Shown: positions 666 to 43,589 of the stretch, piece by piece
How positions within the stretch are numbered: the first letter of the stretch is position 1
Layout of the letters: every line of letters starts with the position of its first letter
Source: Patiria pectinifera
Taxonomy: Eukaryota > Echinodermata > Asteroidea > Valvatida > Asterinidae
NCBI GenBank assembly: GCA_029964075.1
Contig: CM057147.1
Span: forward strand, 11,615,513 to 11,679,512
Length of the DNA: 64,000 nucleotides
Reading direction: 5' to 3'
The notes under the pieces: model-generated
Told to the model about the DNA's origin: nothing
The model's input: only the letters and a program-made list of their open reading frames with translations
Database searches by the model: none
Made by a program: the position numbers and the translations under genes

Positions 666-921
666 AATGCCCATTGATCTCCCTACCCTTCCTGGAGAAT
701 GTCGTCCAATGTTCCATCGACGATCGCTGCCTCGGCATCCAATGCTGCATCCATCTTGACTTTGTCATCACTGAACTCTTGCTGAGTGCAAGGATTCAAG
801 TCGACCCTTGCAACTTCCAGCTGTATGTGGCCTTTGAGAACTGGGAACTGAACATCACTCTCTTCAGCTACACCTGGGGAAAGGTGGAAACGGTGAACAT
901 TGGAAACGCTGTGATGTTGAG
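666..921 (+). CDS. Exon 1: A segment of cysteine-rich unit 1
   Basis: Encodes the six-cysteine A segment: CP at the start, QC, DRCLGIQCC, and DPCNFQL, then a conserved tail FENWELNITLF, WGK and GNAVMLR. Enters in phase 1 and leaves in phase 2 with donor AG|GTGAGT. The sequon NIT is a likely N-glycosylation site. It is clearly homologous to exons 4, 7, 11, 14 and 17. Confidence 0.88.
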
Positions 922-1497
922 GTGAGTTTGGTGCTTATGTTTCTTCTGTTTGTTGAGGATTGGAGAATTGGGGAAAAATCTGTTCTTTTGATTGTTAATT
1001 GAAGTTACCAAATTTAAAGATGAAATACTCCTTAATTTGTAAAAATGGACTCGAAAGATACAATTCAGAACATTTCAAAACATGATTGGGCAATATGATT
1101 GAGCAACTTTTGATTTGAAATTGAGATCCTAGAATGCTGTTTTTCTCAGAATATACATCTTAGATGTTGAACACTTTTGTTGCTTCAAACAAACAAAATG
1201 CACAAATTACAAATGATGGACTATGTCTTTAAAAAGCCATTTAAGATGTTGCATTTGAATTCCATTTCAACTATCCATGTATACAAATATGACAAAATCG
1301 GATCCTTGAAGCACTGATACACAAGTATAGGAAGGAAACTATTAATTACAGTAGTTCTTTGGGCCGAGAACTTCTGGTGAGCACTACTTTCATTTATATG
1401 TCCCTATAAAAATATGACACTTTAATGCCAATGAAAATTACCTTGTGTAATTTGCCCCCCCCCAATAATTCAAATTTGTAACATTTGCTATTTTCAG

Positions 1498-1747
1498 CTA
1501 TTCCCTTGAGAAGCTGACAGCCAAGAGAGTCTTCTCTGTGACTTTGAGTCTCACGTTGTGCATTGATGACACCTGCACCATGAACCCAATACTTGACCAT
1601 GTCTGGGTTCCTATACCCTTGTGTAACACTAATGCTACATCATTCACCTTGCCTGGTGATGGCACAGTGGAGGGATTCATACGAGAGCTAGGCGGTCGCA
1701 TTGGAAACTCTGCTATTGACCTGGTGCTGGAGAAGTTTGGCCTGAGT
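1498..1747 (+). CDS. Exon 2: B plus most of L, unit 1
   Basis: Begins YSLEK and carries the B cysteines LCIDDTC and PLCN. It runs without an intron into the L segment LPGDGTVEGFIRELGGRI and ends FGLS in phase 0 at GTGAGT. In units 2-4 an intron separates B from L at the LPG glycine, so unit 1 has lost that intron or the others gained it. Sequon NAT is present. Confidence 0.88.
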
Positions 1748-2268
1748 GTGAGTGTGCATAGTTTGATGTCTCATTGGCTTTTAATCATTGTCCTATCCAA
1801 GGCTATTGGTAATGGCTAATCTCTTTCATAAAATATTATCAAGGAATTGTAAAGGTTGTGGGTAGCCTACCGCCATGATCAGATTGAAGTAATTGGAGTA
1901 ATGGATATATAGCTGTAAAAGGGGTTGATCCCCTCCCCCTTGCGCGCAAAAAAACTTATTATAAAAAAACTTATTTAAAAAAGGTATGTATCCTTTACTC
2001 ACATTCTCTTAAATAGCCTCAGAATGCAAATCACTTCTAAAAGGGACGCATGACTTCAATAGCCTAACCTCGCCCCTTGAGTAAAACCTGGATCCGCCCC
2101 TGTGTCTAGTTAGTGGAGGGAAAAGGGCAATCTAGACACAGATTGGCACAATACAATGTTCCATCGCTTCACATATACATGTACACACCTACATGTAGCT
2201 TTTCTGTTTTATCTAAATACATTTTGTAAAGTAGGTATAATCTCTTTCTGCTCTTAACCTCACTGCAG

Positions 2269-2323
2269 CAATATCTGCAGAGTGTACCTTGTGACAGGGG
2301 AACACCAGGCACCTTGAGGAGTG
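2269..2323 (+). CDS. Exon 3: L tail, unit 1
   Basis: A 55-base exon encoding about 18 residues ending VPCDRGTPGTLRSG. It supplies the tenth cysteine of unit 1. Phase 0 in and phase 1 out match both neighbours, and the PC motif aligns with the L tails of exons 10, 13 and 16. Confidence 0.75.
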
Positions 2324-2826
2324 GTAAGTTTGATGCGGTTTTGCCAGTGGTAGTTAATTACCTAGATGGTGTCAAAAATGAGAGTAGGACTTTTAAGAAC
2401 AAACCGTGCACAAAATAGGGCACTGAACGTATTTCCTCCATTCAGACCGTTAGACCATGAAAGACCCCTGACGTGTTGACATTCACTTCTGTCGTATACC
2501 ATTATTCATACAAGAACCTCATACCAAATCTGAGGTTCCAAGAAGTTCAAATTGCTAATCTTGTAATGTTCCTCTCTGACCCAGCTCAGTTTTTGTTTTT
2601 CATAATTATTGTCTTTTAATATCTGTCAGCGTCTCCAAATCTAACCTCTACATAGTAACTGTCACTGTTGTTATTTGACACTGCATGATTCCTGTCTTTC
2701 CCAGCTTGTCAGGCATTGGTGTCAACTAGATTCCTGACTTCCTCACATGCAATGTCACCTATTACAGGCTGAGTCGTTACTGTCGCTGTCATTTGTAATA
2801 TTTGTAATTGATTCTCTTTCTTCAAG

Positions 2827-3082
2827 GCTGTCCAGCCGTTGATGTCACCCAGCTGCCTGAGTTCCTATCTTGCACTGTCACTGAATCCTGCCTGGGCATC
2901 CGATGCTGTCTGGAGATGGACTTGAAGATAACGACTCGCAGCGTCAGTGCCTGGGTCATCCTGGATCCCTGCAACTTCACCCTGTCTGTGGGCTTTGAGA
3001 AGTGGGAACGTAGTATCACTTTGTTCCACTACCCACTGGGTGACGTCATGGAGGAAGTTGTGAATGGCGTCCTGACAGTAAG
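2827..3082 (+). CDS. Exon 4: A segment, unit 2
   Basis: GCP, LSC, ESCLGIRCC, DPCNF and the tail GFEKWERSITLF give the six A cysteines in the same spacing as exon 1. Phase 1 to phase 2. Sequon NFT follows DPC. The exon has the same length as exon 1 (256 bases). Confidence 0.9.
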
Positions 3083-3234
3083 GTATGACACTATATCTTT
3101 GTATCTTTGGAGATACCATTATTGTTAAGTTCCGTGCTTTGTGCGTTTCCCTGACAAACTGTCACAGAATTTTGAATTTTCAATTAGTGTTTTTGCAAGT
3201 ATCAGTTTTTTTCCCACAACGAAGCATGGCAACT

Positions 3235-3330
3235 ATAGGATGCTCACACAGGCTTCCTTTGCATGTGGGCCTAGCGGGAATTGAACCCGGCTGACTGAGA
3301 TGGAAGGCAAAGAGAGCACCACTGTACCTC
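3235..3330 (-). repeat. Antisense tRNA-derived SINE fragment
   Basis: Contains GCGGGAATTGAACCCGGCTG, which on the minus strand reads as a pol III B box (GGGTTCAATTCCC). No complete tRNA fold is seen, so this is a SINE fragment. Confidence 0.5.
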
Positions 3331-3512
3331 CCCTTGTATTGTGTAGTTGGTCACCCTCTCCATCAATGGTTGAAGGACTATGATGATTACACAGCAATTA
3401 GTTTAATACGTATGAAAATGGCAATTCCCAAACTAATTTATATCTAATCAATCACAAATCTGTATGCAGTTTTACTTTTCTTCAACTTGAACACTCTTGT
3501 GACAGCTCCTTA

Positions 3513-3906
3513 TAGTGGTGTGCGTCGGAACCGGGTATCTGAGAAACCCCACCGCTATGTCAGGAACCGGTTCCAGATTATTTGATCGGTTACCAGTAAC
3601 AAAATTTACAAATCACTTGATTACTTCTCAGACAATTATGAAAAAAAAGGTTTTGAATGCCATTTGTCATGTTTGTGGCGATTTTCAAAATGAAAACTGG
3701 GACACATGGAGACCTTAAACAGCTTTAACATTTATGTGCAATTGCTAGAGAGAATGTTCGCAAAAGCTGCGTTCACCTTAAACCTATAAGCCCGGCAGAC
3801 AACTTCGAATTTTGGGATGGGGTTTCTTTTTAGGGGTACCTCGGTACCCGTGTTTTTATTGAATAGGGTACCCGATTCCTGTACTAACCGTAAATACACA
3901 CCACTA
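3513..3906. mobile_element. hAT-like MITE
   Basis: Short inverted ends TAGTGGTGTG and CACACCACTA enclose 394 bases with no coding capacity. The flanks GCTCCTTA (3505-3512) and GTTCCTAA (3907-3914) match at six of eight bases, consistent with an aged 8-bp target duplication typical of hAT elements. Confidence 0.65.
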
Positions 3907-3975
3907 GTTCCTAATAGCTTATTTAACATTGTTACATTTCCTTTTTGACTGTGTAATTTGCATTTAAACACGTAG

Positions 3976-4130
3976 ATGGCGAGTGGCTAAGATCACCAAG
4001 AACAAGCAGTTTGAGATAGACTTGTCCCTAGTCCTCTGTGTAGATGGAGCATGTGACACCCTGACAGTGTTTGCTGGCAGTCGCCTTCCAACACCGCTGT
4101 GTAACACCCGATATACATTCACTCTGCCTG
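3976..4130 (+). CDS. Exon 5: B segment, unit 2
   Basis: Encodes LCVDGAC and PLCN with the ending YTFTLPG. Acceptor CGTAG, donor G|GTATGT, phase 2 to phase 1. The following intron contains the large minisatellite. Confidence 0.88.
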
Positions 4131-4454
4131 GTATGTTTACAGCTCACTTCTATGGCCAGTGACTTTGGGTTGTGATTTATTGTCACTGATCAAAGGTAAA
4201 GTTCACAAATTCCATCGTGATGGCAAGTCAATTTGAACAATTTCAATTTATATTTGTTGCATTTCACATATACTTCCGAAAGTTTGTTTCAGTACGGAGA
4301 AGGAATTACATGTAATAAACAGTTTGGCGGCACTGGTTATATTATATTTTCTGTGTATGTTCCCTTTAACCGGACATCAACACGATTGCTTCTTTGCACG
4401 TAAAAAGACACTTGAAAAAAGTCAAATGTGTTGTTGTACTCCCTTCACTGACAC

Positions 4455-7125
4455 CCTAGTGCATGCAAGCCATCCTACACTCTGACTCTCCATAGATGTC
4501 TCACTGCACCATGTAGTGCATGCAAGGCATCCTTCACTCGGAATCTTAATAGTGGTCTCACAGCATCATCTAGTGAATGCAAGGCATCCTTCACTCTGAC
4601 TCTCCATAGTGGTATTATTTTCCTTTATTGCACCCCATCGATCTATTAAGCCCTTCCCGTGCTGTTTTGTCAAATAACAACTCAGAACACTGTCCAACAA
4701 AAGTCCAACGATCGTATTTGCAAAAGAAGTTCATACTGTGAGCATGTAGTGTGACAGTCGGGAGGTGCACTAGTTGTTGCCCTCGTATCCAGTATGCAGG
4801 GTCGAATGGATCGCTCATCACCATCTAGTGAATGCAAGGCATCCTACACTCTGACTCTCTATAGTGGTCTCACAGCATCGTCTGGTGAATGCAAGGCATC
4901 CTTCACTCTGACTCTCTATAGTGGTCTCACAGCAAAATCTAGTGCATGTCTCTCCATAGTGCTCTCACAGCATCATCTTGTGCATCAAGGCAGTCTGCTC
5001 TCTGTCTCTCTATAGGTGTCTAACAGCACCATCTAGTGAACGCAACGCACCCTTCACCCTGACTGTCTATAGGTGTCTCACAGCATCATCTAATGAATGG
5101 AAGGTATTCTGCACTCTGTCTCTTATAGTGGTTTTACAGCATCGTCTAGTGAATGCAAGGTTTCCTACACTATGACTCTCTTTAGTAGTCTCACAGCATC
5201 ATCTAGTGAATGCAAGGCTCTACAGTCTGACTATAGTGGTGTCATAGCATCATAAAGTGAATGCAAGGCATCCTGCAATCTCACTCTCTGAAGTGTTCTC
5301 ACAGCATCAGCTAGTGAAGGCAAGTCATCCTTCACTCTGATTCTCTATAGTGGACTCGCAACGCCAGTGCAAGGCACCCTGCACTCAGACTCTCTAAAGT
5401 GGTCTCACAGCACCATTCCGTGAATGCAAGGTAACCTTAACTCTGACTCTCTCTGGTGGTCTCACAGCACCATCTAGTGAATGCAAGGCATCCTTCACTC
5501 TGATTATCTGTAGTGGACTCTCAGCGCCAATGCAAGACATCCTGCAATCTGACTCTCTATAGTAGCTTCACAGCACCATCTAGTGAATGCAAGGCATCCT
5601 TCACTCTGACTCTCTTTAGTGGTCTCACATCACCATCTAGTGAATGCAAGGGTTTCTGCTCTCTGTCTCTCCAAAGTGGTCTTACAGCATCATCTTGTGC
5701 ATGCAAGGCATTCTGCTCTCTGTCTCTCTATAGTTGTCTTACAACACCATCTAGTGAATGTAAGGCATTCTGCACTCTGTCTCCCTACAGTAATCTCACA
5801 GCAACATCTAGGGCATGCAAGACATCCTTCACTCTGACTCTCTGAAGTGGTGTTATAGCATCATATAGTGAATACGAGGCATCCTGCAGTCTTACTCTCA
5901 GAAGTGTTCTCACAGCATCGTCTAGTGAATCCAAGGTTTCCTATACTTTGACTCTCTATAGTGGTCTCACAGCATCATCTAGTGAATGCAAGGCATCCGT
6001 CACGCTGATTCTCTATAGTAGACTCACAACATCATCTAGTGCATTCAAGGCATCATTTACTATAGCCCTCTATAGTGGTCTTACAGCATCATCTAGTGAA
6101 TGCAAACCATCCTGTACTCTGACTCTCCATATTGGACTCACAGCATCATCTAGTGAATGCAAGGCATCTTGTACTCTGACTCTCTATAGTGGTCTCACAG
6201 CACCATCTAGTGAATGCAAGGCATTCTTCACTCTGACTCTTTATAGTTGTCTAACAGCATCATCTAATGAATGGAAGGTTTTCTTCACTCTGTTTCCCTG
6301 TAGTTTTCTTACAGCACCATCTAGTGAATACAAGGCATCCTACACTCTGACTCTCTATAGTGGTCTTATAGCACCATCTAGTGAATGCAAGGCATCCTGC
6401 ACTCTGTTTCTCTATAGTTGTCTAACAGCATCATCTAATGAATGGAAGGTTTTCTTCACTCTGTTTCCCTGTAGATTTCTTACAGCACCATCTAGTGATT
6501 ACAAGGCATCCTACACTCTGACTCTCTATAGTGGTCTCACAGCACCATCTAGTGAATGCAAGGCATTCTTCACTCTGACTCTTTATAGTTGTCTAACAGC
6601 ATCATCTAATGAATGGAAGGTTTTCTTCACTCTGTTTCCCTGTAGTTTTCTTACAGCACCATCTAGTGAATACAAGGCATCCTACACTCTGACTCTCTAT
6701 AGTGGTTTTATAGCACCATCTAGTGAATGCAAGGCATCCTGCACTCTGTTTCTCTATAGTGGTCTCACAGCATCATTTAATGCATTCAAGGCATCCTTCA
6801 CTCTGTCTCTCTAAAGTGGTGTTACAGCACCATCTAGTGAATGCAAGGCATCCTGCACACTGACTCTCTAAAGTGGTGTCACAGCATCATCTTGTGAATT
6901 CAATGTATCCTTCACTCTGACATTTTACAGTGGTCTCACAGCACCATCTAGTGAATGCAAGGTATCCTTCACTCTGTCTCTCTATAGTGGTCTCACAACA
7001 TCATCCAATGATTGCAAGGCATCCTGCACTCTGCCTCTCCATATTGATAACACAGCATCATCCAGTGAGTGCAAGGCATCCTTCACTCTGTCTCTATAGT
7101 GGTCTCACAGCACCATCTACTGTTT
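4455..7125. repeat. 57-bp minisatellite with 171-bp higher-order repeat
   Basis: About 43 imperfect copies of a unit containing CATCTAGTGAATGCAAGGCA, CACTCTGACTCTCTATAG and GTCTCACAG fill most of intron 5. A non-repeat stretch interrupts it at about 4614-4812. The unit is 19 codons long, so long open frames occur by chance (for example 5948-6814). Diagnostic TGTCTAACAGC starts at 6248, 6419 and 6590, exactly 171 bases (three units) apart, showing recent higher-order amplification. Confidence 0.93.
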
Positions 7126-7385
7126 CTGACGTGAATCCGCACGTGTCCACTATCACCAAACCTACATGCATTGTTGTAATCAAGTGTATCAAAAATCCAG
7201 TCAAATGTAATTACAAGTCAATTCACTTAAGTCTTGTCAACAGTAAAAGGGAATGAACAGTAACAAGAATGTACTTATCATCGTACATTTGAATAGCGTG
7301 GGACTTAATCTGGAAATACATGTACTCTTATGTTAAGAATTTTCCGATGCATGTGTTACATTTTGTAACCTTTTTTACTTCCCAG

Positions 7386-7517
7386 GTGATGGCTCAGTGT
7401 CAGGCTTTTTGAGTTACCTTGGTGGTAATGTCGGTCAGTTTGCCATAGATGCAGCCCTGCGTCATCTTCATCTGACTGGCTTCCTCACAGGAAAGGCATG
7501 CAGCTATCACACACAGG
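7386..7517 (+). CDS. Exon 6: L segment, unit 2
   Basis: Encodes DGSVSGFLSYLGG, an amphipathic helical stretch and the cysteine motif KACSYHTQG. It aligns with the second half of exon 2 (DGTVEGF). Phase 1 to phase 1, 132 bases, the same length as exon 13. Confidence 0.88.
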
Positions 7518-7732
7518 GTATGTACAGCTAATTGCATTTAGAACAGGCTCAAGAAAGTTGTCACGAAATTAATTGTGATTTGTTGTTTATTTAGAGGAGA
7601 TTTTAGATAAACCCTTTATGGAATAAATTTTGTGACCCTCAAATAGAAAACCAGTCGGAAGTCGTGTTTTGAAATACAGCAAGATGTTTTAACACCCAAA
7701 TGGATCGATCACTTGTTTGTCTTCCTCTCTAG

Positions 7733-7939
7733 ATGTCTGTGCCAGCTCCACTAGTATCCTAGGCAACTGCACTGTGATTGGTGAGACCTGCACGGAGTTA
7801 CGATGCTGCCTGGACCTGGACCTGAAGATAGCTGATGTCTCGGCCACCACATGGTTCAAATTTGACCCTTGTGACTTCACCTTCTCGTTGGGTCTGGAGA
7901 AGTGGTCCTTTCATGGCTCTGTCTTTAGTTATCAATGGG
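7733..7939 (+). CDS. Exon 7: A segment, unit 3
   Basis: Carries VCAS, GNC, ETCTELRCC and DPCDF with the tail GLEKWSFHGSVF, ending at the tryptophan of the WG motif. CLGI is replaced by CTEL. An extra intron splits off the last part of A into exon 8. Phase 1 to phase 1. Confidence 0.88.
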
Positions 7940-8521
7940 GTAAGATCTGGCTGTGTGTCGCTAGATTCAATGAGTGGTTTGGAGGGGTATGAAGTAAAGG
8001 GGTTCCAAATTGCACAAAGGATTGATGCCCGCTACTAAGTCAGATGACAATTGAAAATTGATAACTATAATTTGAAAAAAAAAAACTGTTGGGTGGCCTA
8101 GATATTTAATATAAAGATAAGATGTTGGAGATTTTGCCAATAAAGTTCATTGTATAATATAAATGCAACTTAAATACTAGTTTGTTATATATACTCAGGT
8201 TGAAATTAGGATTTCCATTTATTCTGTATAATTACTACTTGAAGAAGTGTGTCAAATTCAAATTTAAGATATACATTTGAAATTCAGGTTCAAGTGCAAC
8301 ATAACACGCTTTCTTTCATTTCTGTAAATAGTTTGTATTCTGAATCCTTGGTTCCTCTTCCCAGTTTCCAGTTTCGCCCTCACCTCCTGTGCTATTTGGC
8401 CTCTTTCGTTGCTGTGTGAGGGTAGTGCTTTTGTACTGATTTTTTTTTCTTATTAATCTTGTCAAAATTTAAAAAAACTAACAGATGCTAGAGCATGAAT
8501 ACTGTGTTTTTGTATTGGTAG

Positions 8522-8564
8522 GAAAAGAGATGACAGTCACAATTGCTTCAGGATTGAATCTGAG
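8522..8564 (+). CDS. Exon 8: end of A segment, unit 3
   Basis: A 43-base microexon encoding GKEMTVTIASGLNLR, which aligns with GKVETVNIGNAVMLR at the end of exon 1. Phase 1 in, phase 2 out, donor AG|GTAAGT. Too short to be found as an ORF; the homology and phase decide it. Confidence 0.78.
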
Positions 8565-9408
8565 GTAAGTATGAACAATTCAACATAATGTCATTAGCAC
8601 TGCATAATCACCAACTTGCTTGTGATTTGTCTTCCCCACAAAGCTCAGGGATATCACTGAGTAAATGTTGTTAAAGTAATTTCATCAGCAAGGATTAAAA
8701 AATTAATATTATACTCAAACTCCATTTAAGTAGAAAGACACCCCAGTTGTGTGTGTGTATGTGGCACAGCTTCAAGTTAAATTTTTTTTTAATCACCGGA
8801 AAACCAAAGCGTAGGACAAACCGGAAGCATTAGGCGGTACTGCTGACCACCGTCAATCATCGATGAATAATGATATTTACAGGCTACGTGCATATGTGTT
8901 CTGATAGTGATATCGATACAAGATTATCGGAATACAAAAAAGGTAGGGCAAACCGGAAACATAGACGTTACACCCAAACTTACAAAGGACTCAATGATAA
9001 CAATAACAACTACATGAATGTGGATAGTGATACCCTTTTAATGAAGACCATTTTCCACACATGTACAAACCATCAACAAAGAAAGCAACAATGACTCAAT
9101 GATAAAGGTAACCACAATATAGATAGTGATACCCATGACCACTATCCACACAAACCATCAAAAAGGAACGCAACAGTGTGAATGTTCTCTACTCTATAGA
9201 AATCGCTACAGTAAAACCATAGACCATAAAGGTCAACAAATTAGTTATTCCAGAAAACTTTCTTAGAAGAGTGATTTTCAGTCAATTGTTCCAACCGCTG
9301 GAACATGCAGCCGGTGTAATTCGTGTGGGATGTTACGGGCTATTTGTTACACATTTATGTTTACAATAAGAATAAACTCCCAGGTATGGTAGGGAATGGG
9401 CCGTGGGG

Positions 9409-9736
9409 CAGGCGCGGTTCTAGAACCAATATTTTAGGGGGACTAGCACGGTGGATCAACAATTGTTTTCAGGGAGGCGTGCAGAAATGTTGACCGGTTA
9501 TTTTTTCCAGACACTTAGGCCTCCGAAAATCAATGGGGAGCGCCAATAAATCCTAAAATCATTCACAATATATTAACTAATGCACCCTTGTCACGGCTAT
9601 TTCTTCTTTAGGGGAGACCGTTCGCATGTACATGCAATTTTTATTTTTTTTACGGAATTTTTTTCGGGGGGGGCTAGACAAAATTTTGGGGGGCTACAGC
9701 CCCCCCCCCCCCAGCCCCCCCGTAGAACCGCGCCTG
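9409..9736. mobile_element. hAT-like MITE, copy 1
   Basis: Starts CAGGCGCGGTTCTA and ends TAGAACCGCGCCTG, perfect inverted termini, flanked by a perfect 8-bp duplication CCGTGGGG (9401-9408 and 9737-9744). 328 bases, with a long C run near the right end. Non-autonomous. Confidence 0.88.
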
Positions 9737-10278
9737 CCGTGGGGCACATCACGGCGCTATATTGTTACATTACAAATTACATCTAGCACATGAAACTTTA
9801 GAGGTATACGTACAAGCAAAATGTCCCATCCTATTGAAGTTAGCTAATTTCATATCCAACACGATTGGGTGTTAGACTTCTTATTTGGCACGAACAAACG
9901 CAGCTTGTTTCTCAACCGAACCAGTTGCAACACATTACAAAGAAAGGATTGTAGGGGAGGAGGAGGGAAATTATTTTCAAACTAACTTTAATGTTTGACA
10001 CACACATCTATCAATATGTACTCCTGCCTACGAATTGGCCTAGCATTTTGGCGGCAACCCACTTACGATGATTGGCTGCCTATAATCCCAACGCTGATTG
10101 GCTGCCTAGAATCCTGACTGCTGCTATAAAAAGGCGAGATATTCATATAACGTCCGCAATCGTGATATACAACACGGCAAGCGTGGACATTTGTCAGTAC
10201 CAAAACAATGTTTTCCGTTGAGTATAATGGATTTTATCATTTACGTGATAAAATTTCTTCATTCATGTTTAAATCCCA

Positions 10279-11121
10279 GTACATACCGTTATTTCGTTTT
10301 TACCGTTTTCGATTCCCTCAAAAACAACGAACCGTTGACCGTTTTGTTGTTTTACAGTTTTGTAAAATGTTCAACGGTATTAAGTCACAAAAAAATTATA
10401 TTAAAAAAAAAAAAAAAAAAAATAACCAGTGCACCTTTGAATGTTAATGTGTCCTTGGGATCGAGTCACTGCCTGGGGAATTGCCCTATTCTTACCTTTA
10501 TGTCGTTCTCACGCCATAGTTTGCGAATAGTGGCTATTTGAAGAGCCGCGCTGACTTCCAATTTCCTTCAAAAAAGCATATCTGCAACCTCTTCATAAGA
10601 ATTATGTCTTACCATCCTGTATCTTTTGTGAAATTTCCTGAAATTTCCCAGCGCCATTTTTGCTTGCAAATTTTAAAGCCCTACCAACTGAATCGCAGAA
10701 GATGGGGCTCAGGGACTCAGGGTCACGCCAGGAATCACACTACGCAATTATTATGCCTATAATGTTACTCACGTTAAAACTCCTTCGTGCACGGCATGGT
10801 CCCCCTCCACACCCTCCCCCTTGCCCACCGCTGCAAAATGCACCACGAACTGTTAACTATGACACTTAAATAACGAAAAACAGTCTGACGGTTTTGCCGT
10901 TTTTCAAAGTTATTTGTGAAAAACTGTAAAACAAAAATCATTGAGCGTCATGCTATAATGAATTATACTTAAATGATAAAACGAAATAACTGTATTTATC
11001 TGAACACCGTTTGACCGTTTTACAAAACTGTAAAACGACAAAATGGTCAATTGTTTGTTTCCTTCTTTTTTTCTTTTTTTTTAAGAAATACAAAACGGTA
11101 AAACGAAATAATGGTATGTAC
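10279..11121. repeat. Large inverted repeat (foldback element)
   Basis: Left arm (about 10279-10380) and right arm (about 11010-11121) are inverted copies, including an exact 18-base match at 10350-10367 and 11018-11035. The arms are rich in CGTTTTACCGTTTT-type motifs. The spacer holds a poly-A run at about 10406-10422. No coding capacity. Confidence 0.75.
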
Positions 11122-11203
11122 CGAGATTGTGGTAGCAGTTTTGACTTTAGATATGAAAACATGCACGGTTTTGACTAGGGTATTACTATTAATCCCCTTG
11201 CAG

Positions 11204-11355
11204 ATACTCTATCAAAAAGAAGAATGATACTCATGAGTTTGAGATGAGCATGATGGTAGAATATTGCATTGATGGACTGTGCACTGACATCGACATACAG
11301 CATTACATCCCAATCCCTGTATGCAACCCACGCTTCAGCAATTACAATCTATCCG
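11204..11355 (+). CDS. Exon 9: B segment, unit 3
   Basis: Begins RYSIKKK and encodes YCIDGLC and IPVCN, ending NLSG. Phase 2 to phase 1. The intron before it carries a hAT-like MITE and a large inverted repeat. Confidence 0.88.
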
Positions 11356-12075
11356 GTGAGTTTACAGACAGGTGTCTCATAGGTCACCTCTTCTAAGGGA
11401 TTAAACTATGATTGTTGTTTATACACTGCCCATAGTCACTGAAAAGACTTGTTAATTAATACCACTGTTGATTAATACTACTTAAAACATACTTATATAT
11501 GACTTAGCTATTCAATCACATCAAGAGTGCCATGTTCCATTCAGGTTAACTCTGTACCTACTAGCTTGGAGAACCTTAAATAGATTGAGCATTTGATTAT
11601 AATAAGACTAGATTAATACACTTTTATTGTGACCTTTACATTATAATGATCAAGAGCGCATTACGAGAGAGTACTTTTAAAGTTAGAGCAGACAAAAAGA
11701 GACACAATTAAATTTGAGATAAAGTCAGGTCATCGCTTCAGAGCCCAAAACACCGTATGGGGATATGTCTGTCCCGCAATTAGCCTATCCCTGCTGACAT
11801 TGTAGTGTTCTGTATTTCAAGGCCATTTTACCCAAAGTAAACAAAGTAAGTCTGTGTTACAATCTGCCATTTCACAGCTGTGATTTCAGTTTTCACTTCG
11901 GCACGTTTTAGTAAATACATACCCCTAGACGAAGTGACAGTTTCAGACACAGGGTAAATGGCAAAAATCTAATAAGATGTGACTAGCAAAAGGCACATTT
12001 AATAACTCACAGTCCTCATCCTCACAACACAAGGCAACTCAGTTTGTCACTATCTTTGGTGTTGTTTTTCTCCAG

Positions 12076-12213
12076 TGGACGGTTTCATAGAGACAGTATC
12101 AGGACAGGTCATCCAGGGAGCATCGCTAGCCCTTCTATCACAGCTTGGAATTGACCCAGACTTCTTCAGGAGTCAACCGTGTCGCAACCCTGTGGGGCCT
12201 CAGTCTTATGGCA
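12076..12213 (+). CDS. Exon 10: L segment, unit 3
   Basis: Encodes VDGFIETVSGQVIQG and the tail SQPCRNPVGPQSYG. The donor is taken as A|GTAGGT because it keeps phase 1 to exon 11. An alternative four bases later would break the frame. Confidence 0.82.
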
Positions 12214-13717: not shown

Positions 13718-13878
13718 GTACACCTTGGAGCTCATGGATGGTGAGATATCAATGAGTCTGTCCATAGATGCATGCATCGATGGTCATTGTACAGGACAAC
13801 TCATGATCTTAGATGGTGCAGTATCCCCTCTTCCTATGTGCTTCCCTAACGGGACTATCTCCTGGAAGAATTTACCAG
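13718..13878 (+). CDS. Exon 12: B segment, unit 4
   Basis: Begins RYTLEL; encodes ACIDGHC and PMCFPNGT, ending KNLPG. Phase 2 to phase 1. A Mutator-like MITE sits 53 bases downstream of the donor. Confidence 0.88.
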
Positions 13879-13930
13879 GTAGGACTAAATTGCATTCATG
13901 GAATGTTTATGTGAATTCCACTGGTTCATC

Positions 13931-14470
13931 TTCGCTCGTACCCCGCGCCCTGCAAACAGGACGCTGGGATACTCTGATGAGCTTCACATAATCTTGTGAA
14001 GGAAGTGGCCTATGACCTATGTATAAAGCATCTGGCTGCAGCTGTTCAAGACCGCAGTTAGACAATATGTGCGCAAATGTTATCCGCAAACTTTCCATAG
14101 AATTGCGCACATTCCATACTGGATGTGATTTGTGTCATTGCGGACCATGTGGACAACATTTTGAGCGTCGCATAATGTAATCCGACCGTTCGTGATTCGA
14201 AACGGAGCCTGAGCTAGTGACAGGAATTGTAAATTAACAACACAGATAGGTTTTACAGAATTTCCAACATTATTACGCTTTTCAACGAGAAAAAAATCTC
14301 TAAACTGGAATAAAAGAGTAATGAATCAGTCTTAACGGCCGTTTCAAACCTTGCAGAGTCATGACCTTGATGACGCGCAAGTCACCGGTCATGCAAAATC
14401 CAACCAATCAGAGCGTGAATTCATCAGAGTATCCCAGCGTCATGTTTGCAGGGCGGGGGGTACGAGCGAA
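13931..14470. mobile_element. Mutator-like MITE with 50-bp terminal inverted repeats
   Basis: The first 50 bases (13931-13980) and last 50 (14421-14470) are inverted copies at 48 of 50 positions, starting TTCGCTCGTACCCC. A perfect 9-bp duplication TGGTTCATC flanks it (13922-13930 and 14471-14479). Long termini and a 9-bp duplication point to a Mutator-like family. No ORF of note inside. Confidence 0.88.
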
Positions 14471-15560
14471 TGGTTCATCTGGAACAGTTGATTATGATTT
14501 AAACTTATTGGAGAACTTGAGTTTCCATAGACGATACGTCACTTTGTGTGCACCCGACAACATGAGCAGGCGTACAGATATGCTGCCACATCTTGTGGTC
14601 AGTGTTGGTCAATGGCCCTTACATTTGAGCTCCTCTACATCTTGTTTCAAGTTAGTATCGCTCTTTAGTCATGGAAACAGTTGGACAATTAATTGAGGGC
14701 TATTTCCATGAAACAAGTTTGTATATTTCTATGGTTTTAATGTGTCATGAAATGGGTTGAGATTGTTTGAGGCAAGTGTGATCAGTTTCATTCTGAGACT
14801 CAGCTGCACTCGTATCTAAGATGTCTTTTCAACCTCCCGGACCCCTTATGTGCCCCCCCCCCAACAACAAAAAAAACTTTCCCCTTTTTGTCGTTTTATT
14901 ATGCTGAGTATATGAGTATTTTTTAAAGTACGTATATGAACTGACAAAATGTAGTTGGCCGATCCATTAAACCCTACCGCGCACCAGGTAACAACACCCA
15001 CACCTCTCCATTGCACACTACATGTTCTAGCTGAGCCCGTCAATATTCACACATTCACAAATGTCAGACTTTTTGCAAGCATATCAGACAGTTATCATGG
15101 CTTTGATTGGTCAGAATATCTTGAGGCAGGGCTTATTGTGTCAGTTTATTGCTATACATAGTAGCTAGCTAATAAGAGATGGTTCTCCATGAATGTGCCC
15201 AAACAGCTTATTTATTTTACCCAATCCTTTGGGCTGCATGTGCAAACAAGAGAGGCTGCTTTTCAATTACTTTTGAGAGCCTAGTGGATGGGACACACGC
15301 GCGTGTGCAGACAGGTTTGTGCGTGTAAAGCACGAAGTACGCACAACTATTTTTTTCTTCTTCTGAATGTTCATTTAAGCTATAGCATCTTCACATGAAC
15401 GTCAAGCATCACCGACAATCAAATGTCTCTCCTCAGTGGTCTTTCTCACCTCTCCCTATTTTACCACGGAGGGGACACTTGTAGACAGAGCCAATTGTGG
15501 TATGTTGACATTGTGTTTCACTGACATCAAATAATGCAGTGTTTGTTTTATTACTGCTAG

Positions 15561-15692
15561 GTATAACCTCAATCTCTCAGCTGGCAAGCTTAGATGCTGG
15601 ATTTGAGGCTGTGGCTCAGGCTCTTGGCTTACCATCTCGTCTAGTCTCGGCCTCACCTTGCCCACCTGTGATTCAGCCTAGTCAGTCTGGAG
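15561..15692 (+). CDS. Exon 13: L segment, unit 4
   Basis: Encodes GITSISQLASLDAGF, a leucine/alanine-rich helix, and ASPCPPVIQPSQSG. Acceptor CTGCTAG, donor G|GTAGGG, phase 1 to phase 1. Confidence 0.87.
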
Positions 15693-17002: not shown

Positions 17003-17207
17003 TGTGTCCACACCTCCCCTCTCTGCCCACACTTCAATCAGGGGGTGTATGTCACTATTCAGATGCCTGCCTAGGGGTGGAGTGTTGTCTAGCAGTAGAT
17101 CTCGGCATCATCAGTCGCACCCTGAGGGCCTGGCTGATTGTAGACCCCTGTGATTTCAAACTGAGTGTTGGATTTGAGAACTGGAGTTACAATGTCACCC
17201 TTTTAAG
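17003..17207 (+). CDS. Exon 14: A segment, unit 5
   Basis: CPHL, GVC, DACLGVECC and DPCDF with GFENWSYNVTLL; sequon NVT. The exon stops before the YxWG motif at a phase-2 intron, a position unique to unit 5. Confidence 0.88.
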
Positions 17208-17220
17208 GTATGTAGTTTGT

Positions 17221-17695
17221 TGTGTCGCCCCAACGAATGTTTCGGGAGACACGTACCAGTCATCAATTCTGTATGTTCGCCCATCCGTACGTCAGTATGT
17301 CTGTCTGTCCGTATGTTAAAGTTTACGTTTAAGTTTTTCAAATTACTGTCATTGCCAAAGTATTCACAGGAATTCCATTAAACCTTAGACACAAGGGTAA
17401 TTGAGTACAATGCAATTCACAGACGTTTAGGTTACGTTTTTCACAAACATGTATAACTTCTCTACGCTTTCATGGATGTTGATGAAACTTGGATGCAGTG
17501 ACCCTTGGGTGGGAATTAGGCACAAGTCTTCATCGGATGATTAAGGTCAAAGGCCATGTAGGGGTCATTGTTGATGAAGCAATGGTACGTTTTCCACAAA
17601 CTTGGATCCAGTGACCCTTGGATGGGAAGACATTTGACTTTTCTTCTGAACACAAAACACAAATATAGGGATCGCCCGCGGAAAAGGGCGACACA
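17221..17695. mobile_element. Possible small transposon with 10-bp inverted ends
   Basis: TGTGTCGCCC at 17221-17230 is matched by GGGCGACACA at 17686-17695. The interior has repeated CAGTGACCCTTGGxTGGGAA and GGTCAAAGGCCATG motifs of a type often seen in marine invertebrate repeats. No target duplication was confirmed. Confidence 0.4.
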
Positions 17696-17859
17696 TGCGG
17701 TCCACGGACCATTTGTTTTGTGGGCTATTCATTGCAATCCAAAATGGTCAACATTGAAACCTGCTCGAAAAATGAAGTTAACTTTTCCAAATACTCAAAA
17801 TTTTACATGGAGATAATACTGTGAGTGATTGTAATACAATATGTTTTAAATGTCTGCAG

Positions 17860-18125
17860 TTACAAGTGGGGCAAAGTGACAAGGGAAAGACTGAGTGATG
17901 CCGTCTTGCTCACCTTCACAATCGACAAGACCACAGACAACCGAAACTTCCTCCTCTCCTTCTCTCTGCAACTCTGCATCGCTGGAGTCTGTGCTTCTGA
18001 CATTGTCATCCTTCAGGACTTCACAGCACCGATACCATTCTGTAATCCCAACGGCACTTTGGAGTGGGCTCAAGACTTGGGTAATCTTACAGTACAGGAG
18101 GCACGGATCATGGGAAGGGGGATAG
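17860..18125 (+). CDS. Exon 15: end of A, B and start of L, unit 5
   Basis: Starts SYKWGK (end of A), then B with LCIAGVC and PFCNPNGT, then the start of L. No intron lies at the A/B junction or at the usual B/L glycine. The donor G|GTGACC at 18126 is chosen because it joins exon 16 in frame as GDIGDYASGL. Phase 2 to phase 1. Confidence 0.83.
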
Positions 18126-18361
18126 GTGACCTTGTATCCTTTCTAGGCGATTGCGGAAAGCATGTTTTTATTTGTTTGTTCAAAGAATTGTGAACAAAAA
18201 GTAGTTTCAAGACCCTCTTCACCAACCGGCATTTGCCTAGATGTCTAGCAAAACAAAATAAATCAACAAAAAATAAAAAAATAAAAAAATGACAGAACAA
18301 AATGCAGTCCTACACAAAATTTGAAGTTGCATATTATCGCTATTAATCTGTTTCTGAGTAG

Positions 18362-18478
18362 GTGATATTGGGGATTATGCTAGTGGCCTTGTGGTGAACC
18401 GTCTAAGTGTCAGCGCTGATGTTCTCCTACCTCAACCATGCAGTGGTCCACCAGAACAAATCACACCAGCAACCACAG
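18362..18478 (+). CDS. Exon 16: rest of L, unit 5
   Basis: Encodes GDIGDYASGLVVNRL and QPCSGPPEQITPATTG. The donor is CAG|GCAAGT, so the following intron is GC-AG. Phase 1 to phase 1. Confidence 0.82.
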
Positions 18479-18987: not shown

Positions 18988-19200
18988 GCTGCAGTTTCCT
19001 TGCCGTACCATCAGCTGTCGCACCATTCTGTTCCCTGGATCAGTCCTGTCTTGGGGTTGGTTGTTGCTTGAACTTTGACCTGGGCATAGTTCAGAGGTCA
19101 TTTTCTATCTGGGTCAAGCTGGATCCCTGTGCTCGCACTTTCTCATTTGGATTTGAGAAATGGAGTCATGTTGAGACGATTGCCATACAAGTACTGCAGA
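18988..19200 (+). CDS. Exon 17: A segment, unit 6
   Basis: CSFL, PFC, QSCLGVGCC and DPCARTF with GFEKWSHVETI. The WG motif is lost. Phase 1 to phase 1, donor A|GTAAGA. Confidence 0.88.
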
Positions 19201-19691
19201 GTAAGAAATATTCCATTGTCAACCTTTTTGTTTCAAAAGATGTTTTTCCCAATTAAATTGTTCAAATAGTGTAGCCAATATTAACCAAAATAACTTATGA
19301 TTGAAATAGTGATTTTTATAATGAAGTTCGCTCACTGATTTGCTAGAAATATCCTGCTTGAAACATTTCCCTTTTGTTTTCTTGGTTCTTGGTTGGTTCT
19401 TCTCCTAAATACTCCGCAATTTGTCTCCTGTCTATCTTTTGTTGTCCTCTTGCGACGTATTCCTGGCGCGTGTGTTGCTTCCATAACAATACAACACTTT
19501 CAACCTGTGTGCATTCATTCTGAGACTGGTTGCTTTTTTGTTGGATATAAACAAGTGTTTCCAATGTTGTCTCTGTTGAAAGTGAACTTTTTCCAAAAAG
19601 AAACTTTCAACTAACACTTGCATAGTGGTTTGAGATCCCAGCTAGTGTTTAATGAGAAACTTTGTGGTTTTTTTGTTTCTTATCTCCCCAG

Positions 19692-19731
19692 CTCATTCCT
19701 TTGAGAAAAACCTGGGAGTTCTGAAAATCAG
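19692..19731 (+). CDS. Exon 18: end of A segment, unit 6
   Basis: A 40-base microexon encoding about 13 residues, HSFEKNLGVLKIR. It occupies the place of exon 8 in unit 3, but its sequence is diverged. Acceptor CCCCAG, donor AG|GTAAGA, phase 1 to phase 2. Confidence 0.72.
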
Positions 19732-20848
19732 GTAAGATCGATCATACTTAGGTATGGTAATTTAAAATGCGCCACTATCCAATTAAAAATTATGCTCATG
19801 GCGCAAGAACAAAATGTTCTGTGACATCGTGCAACATAGTAAATCAGTAAAATGTGCCACTCCTGGAGTGCATCATCCGTTCTTGATATCCAATAATAGA
19901 AGATCACAGATCAGTTCAAAGATCAAAGGAAAATGCAATTCACATGGTTTGGTCTAAACTTTGTAGAAGTACATGTAAGAACAACCATCTCGACAATTCA
20001 GTACTGGAAGCTCTGTGGTGGAACTTAGTACTAGTGATGCGGGCAACTTATAATTAGTACTTCAGTTCAAAACTACAGTAACATAGCATGAAAGGCAAGA
20101 GATACAGTCATTTGACAGGTTGCGACTTGGTCTAAACTTTTTAAGGAAAAAATTAACCTTTAACCTAGGAAAACAAGTAAGATAGGGGTAATATCAAACA
20201 AACTGTATGAGTATTGGAGGTTCAAATTTGGAGGCAGAGACAGATTAACTTGAGCAGTTTTTCCTAACGGTCTGTCTCTGACAGAGCCGAGTAACCAAGT
20301 GAAAGGACCGGTCACTTAACTAGATATTCCCTCCCCAAGGACATGTAGTTGACTGCAAGTTCTGCCGCCCACTCACACTGCCAAACAACGAGCCAATTTT
20401 TCATTACCCGTCAAATAGGCCGGTGCGGACTAAGAAATAAAAAATGGGGGCCATACAATTCCATCCCGTTACACATTTAAATATAACCAAACCAAGATAT
20501 TGTGAGTACTCTGGAATTATTAAGTCTTCAGGGCAACTTTATATTGAGAAACCGGTGAAAGATTAGGAATAGCGAGAGGCAGTTTGTTCCAAATATAAAG
20601 ATAAATGTCACCGATGGTATCAGTGACCAACTTATGGTCTGCTTCACACTCAACTTCAGACCAAAGACAAGCAGAAAGCAACCAAGGATAATTTTCCTTT
20701 ACAGGAAGGATGATATTAATAGCCTATGTCTTTCATACCTCTTTCTTCAGCAGTAATACTGATCAACAATCAGTCCAAAACAACTGGAACGTGTTCGAGT
20801 CTGAAATAACTACATGTAGCTTGATAAATAAGCACATACCTTTTAAAA

Positions 20849-22130
20849 TGTCCAGGACCAAATCAGTCAAAAACCATGGGTTACAGGAAAAGAGACAGCT
20901 GTCAAAACAAAGACTGTATAACAGAGCAAAGTCAACCCAGATATCACGTGATTGGTGAAACTTCCGTACCTTCCAGAAGGAGTAACAGAAGAAATGCAGA
21001 TGAAACTATGGGTCATTCCAAAACAATATGTTCAGTGATAATTCTGATACGTCAAACAAATCATTCCGGAAATGTATTAATGCCCAAAAAAACAGGGGCC
21101 TACTACCATCTCTTCTCTTAAGGCAGGTGGCAAAGTTATCTTTGATAGCAAGGGAAACGCGACTACATTTAATTACCAATTCCCGTCTGTTTTCACATGT
21201 GAAAGAGTCTCAACCATGCCAGAGCTAGGCCAGTCTGTATTCTTTTCAATGGACCATATAAATGTCACACATGATGGGGTTATCAAGCTCTTGCAATTTT
21301 TGGAAATCCAAAAGGCAACTGGGCCTGATACTATTCCTGTCCGACTGCTGAAAGAGTTCACTGATAAGATTTCTCCAGTCCTCACAGTATACATCTTCCA
21401 AAAAAATCCTAAGGACACAGGCATTGTTCCATCAGACTGGAGCGTTGCTAACATTTCACCCATCTTTAAGAAAGGAGATGGGAGTGTGCCGTCCAATGAC
21501 TGCCCAGTCTCAATAACATCAACTTTAAGCAAGCTCTTGGAGCGCATCATCTTCAGCAACATCATGGAACATTACAATCAACATCACATTCAACATGGTT
21601 TTCGTCCAGGGCATTCCTTTGAAACACAATTGATAATAATAACTGAAGATCTAGCCAAGTCCATCAATGATTATGAACAAGTTGATGCCATTGTACTAGA
21701 TTTTCCAATACGTTCGAACGTTTACCACATCAACGGCTCATTCGGAAACTAGATAACTATGGTATCAGAGGCCCTCTCCTGTTGTGGGTAGACAATTTCT
21801 TAACTCAACGATCCTAACGGGTTGTCATCGATGGTCAATCTTCTGAGTGGGTACCCATTACATCCAGGGTACCCCTGGGTACCGTGCCGGGACCACTCCT
21901 TTTCGACTCATTTATCAACGATTTGCCATCTGGTACCACCTCCAATACGAGCAGCAGAATTTTGGAGTCTTTGTAGACGAACAAGTTGGTTGCGGGGTAG
22001 ATGATTCAATAGAGAGTTAAAGAAATCCAAACGGTTGTAAAAAGGGCAGGCACACATGTAATCAAGATGGGCAGCTGTCCGTATACTTTTGCAACATCCC
22101 TGGCAGAACTCGACGCAAAACTGCTTGAGT
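20849..22130 (+). pseudogene. Degenerate CR1/L2-like LINE reverse transcriptase
   Basis: Conceptual translation in shifting frames gives QRLYNRAKS, IFDSKGNATTFNYQFPSVF, KATGPDTIPVRLLKEF, ISPIFKKGDGSVPSND, HGFRPGHSFETQL, VPLGTVPGPLLFDSFINDLP, the ordered motifs of a non-LTR reverse transcriptase. Stops and frameshifts break it, the catalytic xADD is decayed to VDE, and the endonuclease is absent. It lies in the sense direction inside intron 18 and is inactive. Confidence 0.85.
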
Positions 22131-22399
22131 GAATTTAGCTTTTTTTTAAGGGAATCATCACATGCTTGAAATGGGAGTTGGTCTGTGGGGTTACAAATTA
22201 AATTCCCTTTTAACTGCTCTGACTCTGCAACTGCTTAAAAACCGTAGTTAAAAAAACAACACCTTGTGATGTGGTATTTGAGTGCAAAGATTGGTTATTT
22301 ATATCACACGAGTGTTATTGGGCCACAGAATAATGTTATGCGTCTGTGTCCCATATGCTACGAGCCTAAGTCAAAGTGGGATAACGAACTTATCTTTAA

Positions 22400-22847
22400 C
22401 CCTCAAAGGGCCGGGTTATTCTGACCATCTCTCAGCCGGCTCCCCCGCCCCCAAGATCTAAGGCATCGATTGACGAAAACATTGAAATCTCACAACATGC
22501 ATTGATTAACTCATCATAAACATACCCTAGACATTTCATAACTCTGGGTCAAAGGGTTTTGGAATTATGCTAATTAATTATTCATATGTACGAATGGTAA
22601 TTCTGCTCTGTGTACACGACGTATACGGGAAAATTCAGTTTTCACGGCGTTTTTCGTGGCGCCGGAAAATGTTTCGCTACGCGGCAACCCGTGGTCCAAT
22701 TTTTATGTTTTTGGTATCAAAACATGCGCAAAGCTTGAGGCAAAAAAGTCACAACAGTTCGGGTAGCGAAAAAAATTCCAAGGCTATCGTGGACAAAGTT
22801 GGTGAGGGGGACAGATTCCAAACACCCCCCCCCCGGCTTTTTTAGGG
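22400..22847. mobile_element. piggyBac-like MITE
   Basis: Flanked by TTAA at 22396-22399 and 22848-22851. Ends CCCTCAAAGGGCCGGG (left) and CCCTAAAAAAGCCGGG (right, reverse complement) are imperfect inverted repeats starting CCC, as in piggyBac elements. 448 bases, non-coding. Confidence 0.75.
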
Positions 22848-23344
22848 TTAAGAAAACTTGACACCCAGCAAAAATGCAACATGCAAGCTGGGATAATTTT
22901 TTAGTGGTCATCCATTTACAGCTAGGCGTGCAAATGTGGCACGTAAACACATGCATCTTGGAAAAGCACAATACAATGAGTGTACGGTAAGAGGATAATA
23001 TCACACTAATCTTGCAATGCATCGACCAATAAGGATTGAGGATTCAAGGTTGCTAGAAAACAAAAGTCTTTCTCACACCTACTGTATGATATAAGTGACA
23101 GACTTCATTGCTGACACGCTTCACTCAGCGTACTGTGCCGGTATGTACATGACAGCAGCGTATGTCAAAAACACAGAGAATCCTTGACAGCGCATTACTC
23201 AATGCATGTGATGTGAACAATAAATATGTAAACTGAGGCTCTGGGTACTTTTTTTCCCTCACCACATGAAAGAACACTTGGTTTCTTAGTTTCCATGCTA
23301 CATTTGACTTGAACATTCCTCTACAATTGTCTCTATGCACGTAG

Positions 23345-23527
23345 GTATGATGTAGAGCGGCCCCACAGTACTATCTATGATGTGGATCTAGACATCAGCT
23401 TGTGTTGGCAGGGTACGTGTGATGAACCCATCGTCATTCTCAGAGATGTGATGTTTTCAGAATCTGAGTGTGCTGTTCAAGGAGGAGGCAGCAGCTCGAG
23501 AAGGAAGAGAAGAAGTGCGGACGACCT
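23345..23527 (+). CDS. Exon 19: B segment, unit 6, with furin-type site
   Basis: Encodes RYDVERP and LCWQGTC, then SECAV in place of PLCN, a glycine/serine run and the polybasic stretch RRKRR followed by SADD (basic codons 23499-23513). RKRR-S fits the furin consensus RxK/RR. Phase 2 to phase 2, a change from the phase-1 exit of the other B segments. Confidence 0.85.
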
Positions 23528-24232
23528 GTAAGTGGACTAAAAAAGTGTTCAATCAGCACATAAGCTATTTCATTTCAAAAGTAAGGTGGACACTGCACAC
23601 TTCTCATGAGCAAATGTGTAAAGTTAAAGGAATCTAAAAAAATAATGCAGCGTGACGTTGCGAACAACAAAAAACTTGTTGATAGCAAGTTTTTTTCTTC
23701 AGAGGCTATTGTTGTTGTAAGCATAAAGAGTGAAGCCCTACCTTTTTTGATATACATGTTATCCATTTTTATATGCCTCCACTATCTCTCCGCAATCTCC
23801 TACACTGCCACAGGTTAAGACCAAAATGTTTAGCCCAAATGTATTACACTGTATTACATTGTATTTATTCCCTGATATATCCATAAATTGTACAGTGCTG
23901 GGAAGGTTTTTGGTGGTAGAGGGAGTAACAGGCAGGATAGTTCCAGAGCCGTATATAGACAGACTTGCGACAAATTCAGACTCAGCGTGCGACTACTGTG
24001 TACGAATTATATATGTGCACTGATGCTTAATCCACCATTTTGGTTCCAAACAGTGCGACCCTTATGTCGCAACTCTCTGTATATACGGCTGTGGGTAATT
24101 CGGGGCGATATGTGGACTAATTGCTGTTGCCAGGTGATTGGTATTTAAGGCTTTTATTTGTGAAAAGTTTTAGATTTTATATTAAAAATTAAGCATTTTA
24201 AGAAAGGCCATTGAGAATGTAACTGGCTCAAG

Positions 24233-24642
24233 AACGGGGTGCTGTGGTCCGATGGTTACGGTGTTCGATTCGTGTGCCGTGGTTCATGGGTTCGAATACA
24301 TGGTGCTTGTGCTCTTTAGCAAGGCACTTAACCATCATTGCTTCGTCCTTTGGATGGGACGTAAAGCCGTAGGTCCCGTGTGTTGTGTAATGCACGCTTA
24401 AGAACCCAGTAACACTTATCGCTATTAAGAGAGAAGGGGTTTGCCCCGGTGTTTCTGGCAGTGGCTGCAATATGTGCCGCAGCACCTTGTTAACCCTTAG
24501 GTTACATAATGGGTCTCATATTTCTCATTGACGTCATTTACCTGTCTCTAAAAATAGACATAAATTCCAGCGACTTGAGTACCTATTTGTTGGTAGATAC
24601 GTGCATTATATAAGACTCCGGTATTATTATTATTATTATTAA
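24233..24642 (+). repeat. tRNA-derived SINE
   Basis: Has an A-box-like TGGTCCGATGG and a B-box-like GGTTCGAATAC about 40 bases apart, a long unrelated body with GCAAGGCACTTAACC, and an ATT repeat tail. The body and tail exclude a functional tRNA gene. Confidence 0.75.
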
Positions 24643-24810
24643 GAATAACTGTCCTTCACAAGGTAGAGGATGTCATTTCAGGGAAGTTTTAGACACTTTT
24701 TGTTAAGGTGGCTTGACAATACTTTTCACCATCACATCTCAGACCCACAGCCTGATTTGGAGGTATTCATTCTTATTACCATTTTCTTGGTGAACTCCAT
24801 GTAATGCTAG

Positions 24811-24971
24811 TGAATCTGCTGAGGGAATGGACAGCGTGGAAGACCTGACATCTAATCTTATAGACAAGGCCAGGGCCTACTTTAAGACCATTCTTAGTGG
24901 AGGCTCCACCTCGTATTCAGCGGAGGAGAACGCCATGACTAAGCTGCAGCCAGAGAAAGCCGTCAAGCCCA
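24811..24971 (+). CDS. Exon 20: L-like acidic helical segment, unit 6
   Basis: Encodes ESAEGMDSVEDLTSNLIDKA and a lysine-containing tail ending AVKPS. Its position and helical character correspond to L, but the terminal PC cysteine is missing. Phase 2 to phase 1. Confidence 0.82.
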
Positions 24972-43565: not shown

Positions 43566-43589
43566 GTAAATGTCATTGTCAATACATTG

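What the first reader, a model, noticed from the sequence alone, without database searches (positions are those of the whole stretch)
666..24971. Six tandem copies of an apparently undescribed ten-cysteine A-B-L module
Units at 666-2323, 2827-7517, 7733-12213, 12976-15692, 17003-18478 and 18988-24971 share CP, C, CLGIxCC, DPC, GFEKW (A), LCIDGxC, PLCN (B) and PC (L). Units 1-5 have exactly ten cysteines, are 187, 181, 180, 184 and 196 residues long, and begin and end in phase 1. I recognise no named family with this cysteine spacing. An even cysteine count suggests five disulfides per unit.
Basis: partly seen in the sequence, partly recalled or inferred. Interest (0 to 1): 0.85.

Follow-up and report, generated by a model that had tools for sequence, protein, structure and literature searches.

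The report
Undescribed module in giant cleaved receptor
The six repeats are the second half of a chain of twelve copies of an uncatalogued cysteine-rich building block at the outer end of a giant animal protein that looks like a cell-surface receptor, seems made to be cut behind the chain, and has at least ten close relatives in the same genome.

Summary
In detail: six paralogous units at the stated places, spliced in frame, bounded by phase-1 introns, each found by a profile of the other five at 89-171 bits (best shuffle 11). Corrections: the array has twelve modules, six of them upstream of the window; unit 6 has nine cysteines and no L part above shuffles. The array opens a giant gene: 52 window exons, 3193 residues, no stop, with PAN and fn3; beyond the window, same strand, lie cadherin-like and EGF-like pieces, a membrane helix and a tail (not joined into one model). 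The genome holds 11 such loci on two contigs. RRKRR, a furin-type site, follows the last module in 11 of 11. No Pfam family, NCBIfam family or PDB sequence matched credibly. Joint loss supports one disulfide (C7-C8); five are not shown. Best reading: a new disulfide-stabilised beta module forming the cleavable outer part of a type I adhesion or recognition receptor. The function is inferred; structure models are weak (pLDDT 60 and 56). UniProt, InterPro and other animals could not be searched.

The parts
666..2323 (+).
   Evidence: Splice-consistent, phase 1 at both ends, 10 Cys, leave-one-out 169.4 bits
2827..7517 (+). Module 8 (unit 2); exons 2827-3082, 3976-4130, 7386-7517
   Evidence: 10 Cys, leave-one-out 170.9 bits; its exons A and B were read in 11 of 11 loci
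7733..12213 (+). Module 9 (unit 3); exons 7733-7939, 8522-8564, 11204-11355, 12076-12213
   Evidence: 10 Cys, leave-one-out 125.0 bits
12976..15692 (+). Module 10 (unit 4); exons 12976-13234, 13718-13878, 15561-15692
   Evidence: 10 Cys, leave-one-out 103.6 bits
17003..18478 (+). Module 11 (unit 5); exons 17003-17207, 17860-18125, 18362-18478 (GC donor)
   Evidence: 10 Cys, leave-one-out 153.0 bits
18988..24971 (+). Module 12 (unit 6): A and B parts clear, L part not recognisable; exons 18988-19200, 19692-19731, 23345-23527, 24811-24971
   Evidence: 9 Cys, leave-one-out 89.4 bits; L part -1.0 bits against a best shuffle of 8.8
23469..23471 (+). Codon of Cys C9 of module 12, which has no C10 in its own unit
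   Evidence: Present in 11 of 11 loci
23499..23513 (+). RRKRR furin-type site directly behind the last module
   Evidence: RRKRR followed by S in 11 of 11 loci; cleavage itself not tested
26031..26045 (+). Second basic run, RRRRR
   Evidence: Translation; not compared between loci
25951..32072 (+). 316-residue cysteine-free stretch, seven exons (25951-26070, 28159-28248, 29083-29222, 29511-29673, 30747-30817, 31439-31593, 31865-32072)
   Evidence: In-frame model; no Pfam match, PDB only E=2
29511..29673 (+). Exon of that stretch where the paralogues differ most
   Evidence: Found in 11 of 11 loci, 43-47% identical in four of them; pS 0.344 against 0.110 for module exons within six loci
36582..36790 (+). 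PAN domain (runs slightly into exon 38275-38570)
   Evidence: PF00024 E 6.8e-5, 23.1 bits, cut-off 21.4; exon placed by my residue count
47880..48306 (+). Fibronectin type III domain (exons 47880-48000 and 48128-48306)
   Evidence: PF00041 E 2.9e-6, 27.8 bits, cut-off 25; exon placed by my residue count
33987..62581 (+). Remaining exons of the window model: further fn3-like repeats (DPESGI / VGTxPG / TVDxTPP pattern seen by eye; only one passes Pfam)
   Evidence: In-frame model, Pfam; piece at 59661-59891 found once in each of 11 loci

Best explanation
The repeats are an uncatalogued disulfide-stabilised, mainly beta-stranded extracellular module of about 180 residues (A: six Cys, B: three, L: a helical segment plus one Cys), spread by tandem duplication of phase-1-bounded units into a twelve-module array. 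The array is the outer part of a giant protein that reads as a type I membrane receptor: twelve modules, a furin-type site, a cysteine-free stretch, PAN and fn3-like repeats, a second region with cadherin-like and EGF-like pieces, one membrane helix and a cytoplasmic tail with an NPVF sequence. Most likely mechanism: proprotein convertase cuts at RRKRR behind module 12 during secretion, so that the array can stay bound as a non-covalent or disulfide-tethered subunit or be shed; the array works as an extended, ligand-binding adhesion or recognition arm. Shown: module, array, splice-consistent exons, co-occurrence of the parts at 11 loci, conserved site. Inferred: disulfides other than C7-C8, surface location, cleavage, ligand binding, function.
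For: Homology and splicing of six units; twelve modules on one strand and no further module within a 344-kb stretch. C1-C6 and C9 in 12 of 12 modules, C7 and C8 both present in 11 and both absent in one; C10 in 10 of 12 (units 1-5; M2-M5; M6 candidate exon), absent in module 12, unresolved in module 1. Both C7 and C8 are missing from module 6 in 10 of 10 loci read. PAN and fn3 above Pfam cut-offs; cadherin-like and EGF-like pieces score below cut-offs. Membrane helix and tail by translation; a helix like it lies downstream of each of the 11 arrays in the matching direction, 13 places in all. RRKRR in 11 of 11. Purifying selection on module 8: summed pN/pS 0.27 over 55 pairs. Models: five strands in exon A, three strands and two helices in exon B.
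Against: No signal peptide was found, and exons that look coding lie upstream of the array, so the N-terminus is unknown. Exons beyond 62581 were not joined into one spliced model and no transcript was available. The models have pLDDT 60.3 and 56.2 and are of single exons. Module 12 has an odd Cys number. Cadherin-like and EGF-like pieces are below Pfam cut-offs. The tail of this gene was not found at E<=0.01 near four of the eleven arrays.
Confidence: 0.6

Rival explanations
1. The module is a diverged member of an already known domain family (for instance a lipid-binding beta barrel or another disulfide-rich family) that profile searches fail to reach; only the name is missing.
Confidence: 0.25
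2. The array is a secreted product: the convertase cut frees a soluble twelve-module protein, for example a matrix, mucus or egg-coat component, and the membrane part serves only for export.
For: RRKRR directly behind module 12 in 11 of 11 loci; the L part and C10, which could tie module 12 across the cut, are missing there.
Against: The membrane-bound remainder is long, kept in 11 of 11 loci and has a tail with an NPVF sequence; nothing here shows release.
Confidence: 0.25
3. Each set of exons is a chance or pseudogene-like duplication without function.
For: C19 copies are recent segmental duplications, with upstream non-coding DNA 74-93% alike.
Against: 0 stops in 3193 residues; pN/pS 0.27; Cys and the basic site kept in 11 of 11.
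Confidence: 0.02

Closest known systems
Class 1-1 extracellular modules of mosaic proteins (EGF, fn3, PAN and the like; concept recalled, Patthy)
   Same: Phase-1 introns on both sides, tandem duplication, disulfide-rich, found with PAN and fn3
   Different: Sequence and cysteine spacing match no Pfam family
Furin-cut type I receptors (Notch and protocadherin- or teneurin-like mosaics; recalled)
   Same: Modular ectodomain, basic cleavage site, one membrane helix, tail
   Different: Outer part is twelve copies of this module; no Notch- or teneurin-specific family passed its Pfam cut-off
Fatty-acid-binding protein / lipocalin-type beta barrels
   Same: Weak fold resemblance of exon A alone

Membership tests
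Any Pfam-A family (module) | Score above a curated cut-off | tested here: not met
   Units 1-6: none in one stretch, singly only Mug135_C E 0.18 in 1 of 6. Modules 1-6, A part only: Benyvirus_P25 E 0.19 in 1 of 6, below cut-off
Any family with a solved structure (module) | Significant sequence match to a PDB chain | tested here: not met
   Profile 0 hits at E<=10; unit 2 one hit at E 0.27
FABP / lipocalin fold | Eight- to ten-stranded barrel | tested here: inconclusive
Class 1-1 extracellular module | Phase-1 introns at both ends of the unit | tested here: met
   6 of 6 units in the window
Class 1-1 extracellular module | Cysteines paired in disulfides | tested here: inconclusive
   Joint loss of C7 and C8 in module 6; others untested; module 12 has nine Cys
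Type I membrane receptor | Signal peptide | tested here: inconclusive
   One script for a first exon found no convincing candidate; coding-like exons lie further upstream
Type I membrane receptor | Single membrane helix followed by a tail | tested here: met
   Helix at 87.6 kb and tail at 88.6-89.0 kb in window numbering; joined to the array by position and co-occurrence only
Proprotein convertase substrate | R-X-K/R-R motif | tested here: met
   RRKRR in 11 of 11 loci
Proprotein convertase substrate | Cleavage in cells | not testable with these tools
   Needs an experiment

The most novel reading that the evidence does not exclude
A new family of giant cleavable recognition receptors: an undescribed twelve-module array, kept nearly constant between at least eleven loci, sits on a stretch just behind the cut that differs strongly between them, so that the loci could form a repertoire with a constant arm and a variable segment for self/non-self or gamete recognition. 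Supporting hint: one exon behind the cut has pS 0.344 within six loci, against 0.110 in module exons and 0.132 in an fn3-like exon (0 and 1 of 1000 codon bootstraps reversed), and is 43-47% identical in four loci where the neighbouring module exon is 87% identical. Against it: pN/pS there is 0.34 within C19 and 0.50 within the four C16 loci, so there is no sign of positive selection, and only one such exon was compared.
Probability: 0.12. Interest if true: 0.75.

Novelty: new variant of a known kind. Interest (0 to 1): 0.48.

Why it matters
If borne out, the module is a new entry for domain databases, with a clear consensus and intron phases. It marks a family of at least eleven giant, convertase-processed receptor-like genes in one animal genome that current libraries see only as scattered PAN and fn3 hits. 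The contrast between a homogeneous array and a divergent stretch behind the cut can be tested directly. It stays within a familiar kind, mosaic extracellular proteins, and many such domains await description in invertebrate genomes, which limits the surprise.

Tried and rejected
Rejected: that the array is six copies (twelve); that unit 6 carries an L part, and that a seventh L-like segment lies near 29.1 kb, since both score below the best shuffles; that the 322-residue ORF at 5846-6814 is a gene, since it lies in a tandem repeat. Led nowhere: Rfam and tRNA scans, 0 each; viral contigs with the module alignment, 2 pattern matches, none a relative; prokaryote contigs with exon A of unit 2, 49 pattern matches, none a relative; Foldseek on both exon models; C10 exon of module 1; first exon. 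Six paper searches, of which I saw listings only. None listed a paper that I recognised as describing the module, but a search by words cannot find a sequence motif, so this is no proof of absence.

Never answered because the machine was busy: an EGF-exon search and one for exon 31865-32072. I did not check the second basic run, RRRRR, between loci, nor the L and C10 exons of the other loci.
Full report
What is there. Reading exons by hand and checking them by script, every unit is open, has AG acceptors and GT donors (one GC donor), and begins and ends in phase 1. Leave-one-out profiles score the real unit at 89.4-170.9 bits against at most 10.8 bits among 2000 shuffles, in 6 of 6 cases. Identities to unit 2 are 27-40% over the module. 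The invariant spacing in units 1 and 2 is C-x13-C-x5-C-x4-CC-x20-C-x57-C-x4-C-x15-C and then a last Cys 47-48 residues on (positions).

Beyond the six. In a 344-kb stretch around it the module profile finds six further modules upstream, with A exons at about -29.1, -19.1, -15.9, -12.2, -8.1 and -3.5 kb in window numbering, and no others. Each of the twelve has a recognisable A and B part. All six A-part cysteines and C9 are present in 12 of 12. C7 and C8 are both present in 11 of 12 and both absent from module 6. The residues between C7 and C8 vary from four to seven. C10 was found in 10 of 12 modules (units 1-5; modules 2-5; module 6, a candidate exon); it is absent from module 12 and unresolved in module 1. 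In module 6 both C7 and C8 are missing in 10 of 10 loci read (this one and nine others), while C9 stays. This is one evolutionary event, but it is what a C7-C8 disulfide predicts. The other pairs have no evidence here.

The gene. From 666 to 62581 a model of 52 exons gives 3193 residues without a stop. Pfam recognises PAN_1 (E 6.8e-5) and fn3 (E 2.9e-6) above their cut-offs in the part behind 33987, and nothing in the modules or in the 316-residue cysteine-free stretch between them. Beyond the window, on the same strand, coding-like pieces go on to about 89 kb: more fn3-like pieces, a GRKRR site, cadherin-like pieces (Cadherin_5 E 1.5e-4 and Big_9 E 3e-4, below cut-off), EGF-like pieces (below cut-off), a membrane helix followed by KKK, and a tail with DNPVF that ends in a stop. 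Upstream of the array further coding-like pieces (about -43.0, -34.1, -33.5 and -32.3 kb) show that the gene, or another one, begins further away; no signal peptide was identified.

Eleven loci. A search of the genome with unit 2 gives 151 matches (150 of 273 candidates scored; the list ends with a note that more exist). All rows listed fall into eleven clusters, six on contig C19 and five on C16 (grouped by eye). Module 12 with its basic site, the exon behind the cut (eleven, plus one weak match at E 0.09), an exon of the cysteine-free stretch and an fn3-like exon each occur once per cluster. The membrane exon occurs at 13 places: one downstream of each array in the matching direction, and two more on C16. 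The tail of this gene is found on C19 and near the C16 10.7-Mb array, but not at E<=0.01 near the other four C16 arrays. The C19 copies share upstream DNA as well, so they are recent segmental duplications. Unit 2 differs far less between loci than modules differ within the array, so the array is older than the gene copies.

Selection. For exons A and B of unit 2 all nine cysteines are kept in 11 of 11 loci, and summed pN/pS over 55 pairs is 0.27 (A 0.18, B 0.38): purifying selection. One exon of the cysteine-free stretch (29511-29673) stands out. Within the six C19 loci its pS is 0.344 (bootstrap 0.248-0.435), against 0.110 (0.077-0.141) for 195 module codons and 0.132 (0.076-0.202) for 77 fn3-like codons; its pN is raised too, with a ratio of 0.34. 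In four C16 loci it is only 43-47% identical while module 12 is 87% identical. Gene conversion of the neighbours, an older origin of this segment, or a higher mutation rate would all do; the ratio gives no sign of positive selection. Codon bootstraps do not correct for the shared ancestry of the loci.

How it probably works. The phase-1 units, the cysteines, PAN and fn3, the basic sites, the helix and the tail together point to an extracellular mosaic on a type I receptor. RRKRR directly behind module 12, kept in 11 of 11 loci, is the best candidate for a working cut. In module 12 the L part and C10 are gone while C9 is kept in 11 of 11 loci, so a cut there need not be bridged inside the module, and C9 may tie the array to another chain. 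That last point is inference. The array as a binding arm is likewise inference.

Known or new. The module is in none of the libraries I could search: Pfam-A, NCBIfam, PDB sequences. UniProt, InterPro, AlphaFold DB and other animal genomes were not available, so an unnamed but annotated family elsewhere is possible. The kind of protein, a mosaic receptor with tandem disulfide-rich modules, is familiar; hence 'new variant of a known kind'.

Noticed in passing
29511-29673: One exon behind the cleavage site differs far more between the eleven loci, also at silent sites, than module and fn3-like exons do.
   Followed up: partly
4456-7119: A 57-base tandem repeat (about 38 copies in its main block) fills the intron between the B and L exons of unit 2 and makes a spurious 322-residue ORF.
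   Followed up: partly
27278-27709: A 142-base tandem repeat, three copies, in an intron.
   Followed up: no
21081-21752: By eye a fragment of a LINE-type reverse transcriptase in an intron of unit 6; no Pfam match at E<=0.01.
   Followed up: partly
52862-53695: By eye a fragment of a DIRS-like reverse transcriptase in an intron; no Pfam match at E<=0.01.
   Followed up: partly
Outside the window, about +155 to +180 kb, minus strand (L025-L029 region): The 3' half of the neighbouring paralogue, tail to tail with this gene; its tail exon carries an extra segment.
   Followed up: no
Outside the window, about -158 to -132 kb, minus strand: Another set of fn3-like coding pieces with the same VDxSPP / AGTTAG pattern, without modules.
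   Followed up: no
G000:C16:6014918-6015016 and C16:6467284-6467382, minus strand: Two further copies of the membrane exon that lie by no array found with unit 2, perhaps further members of the gene family.
   Followed up: no
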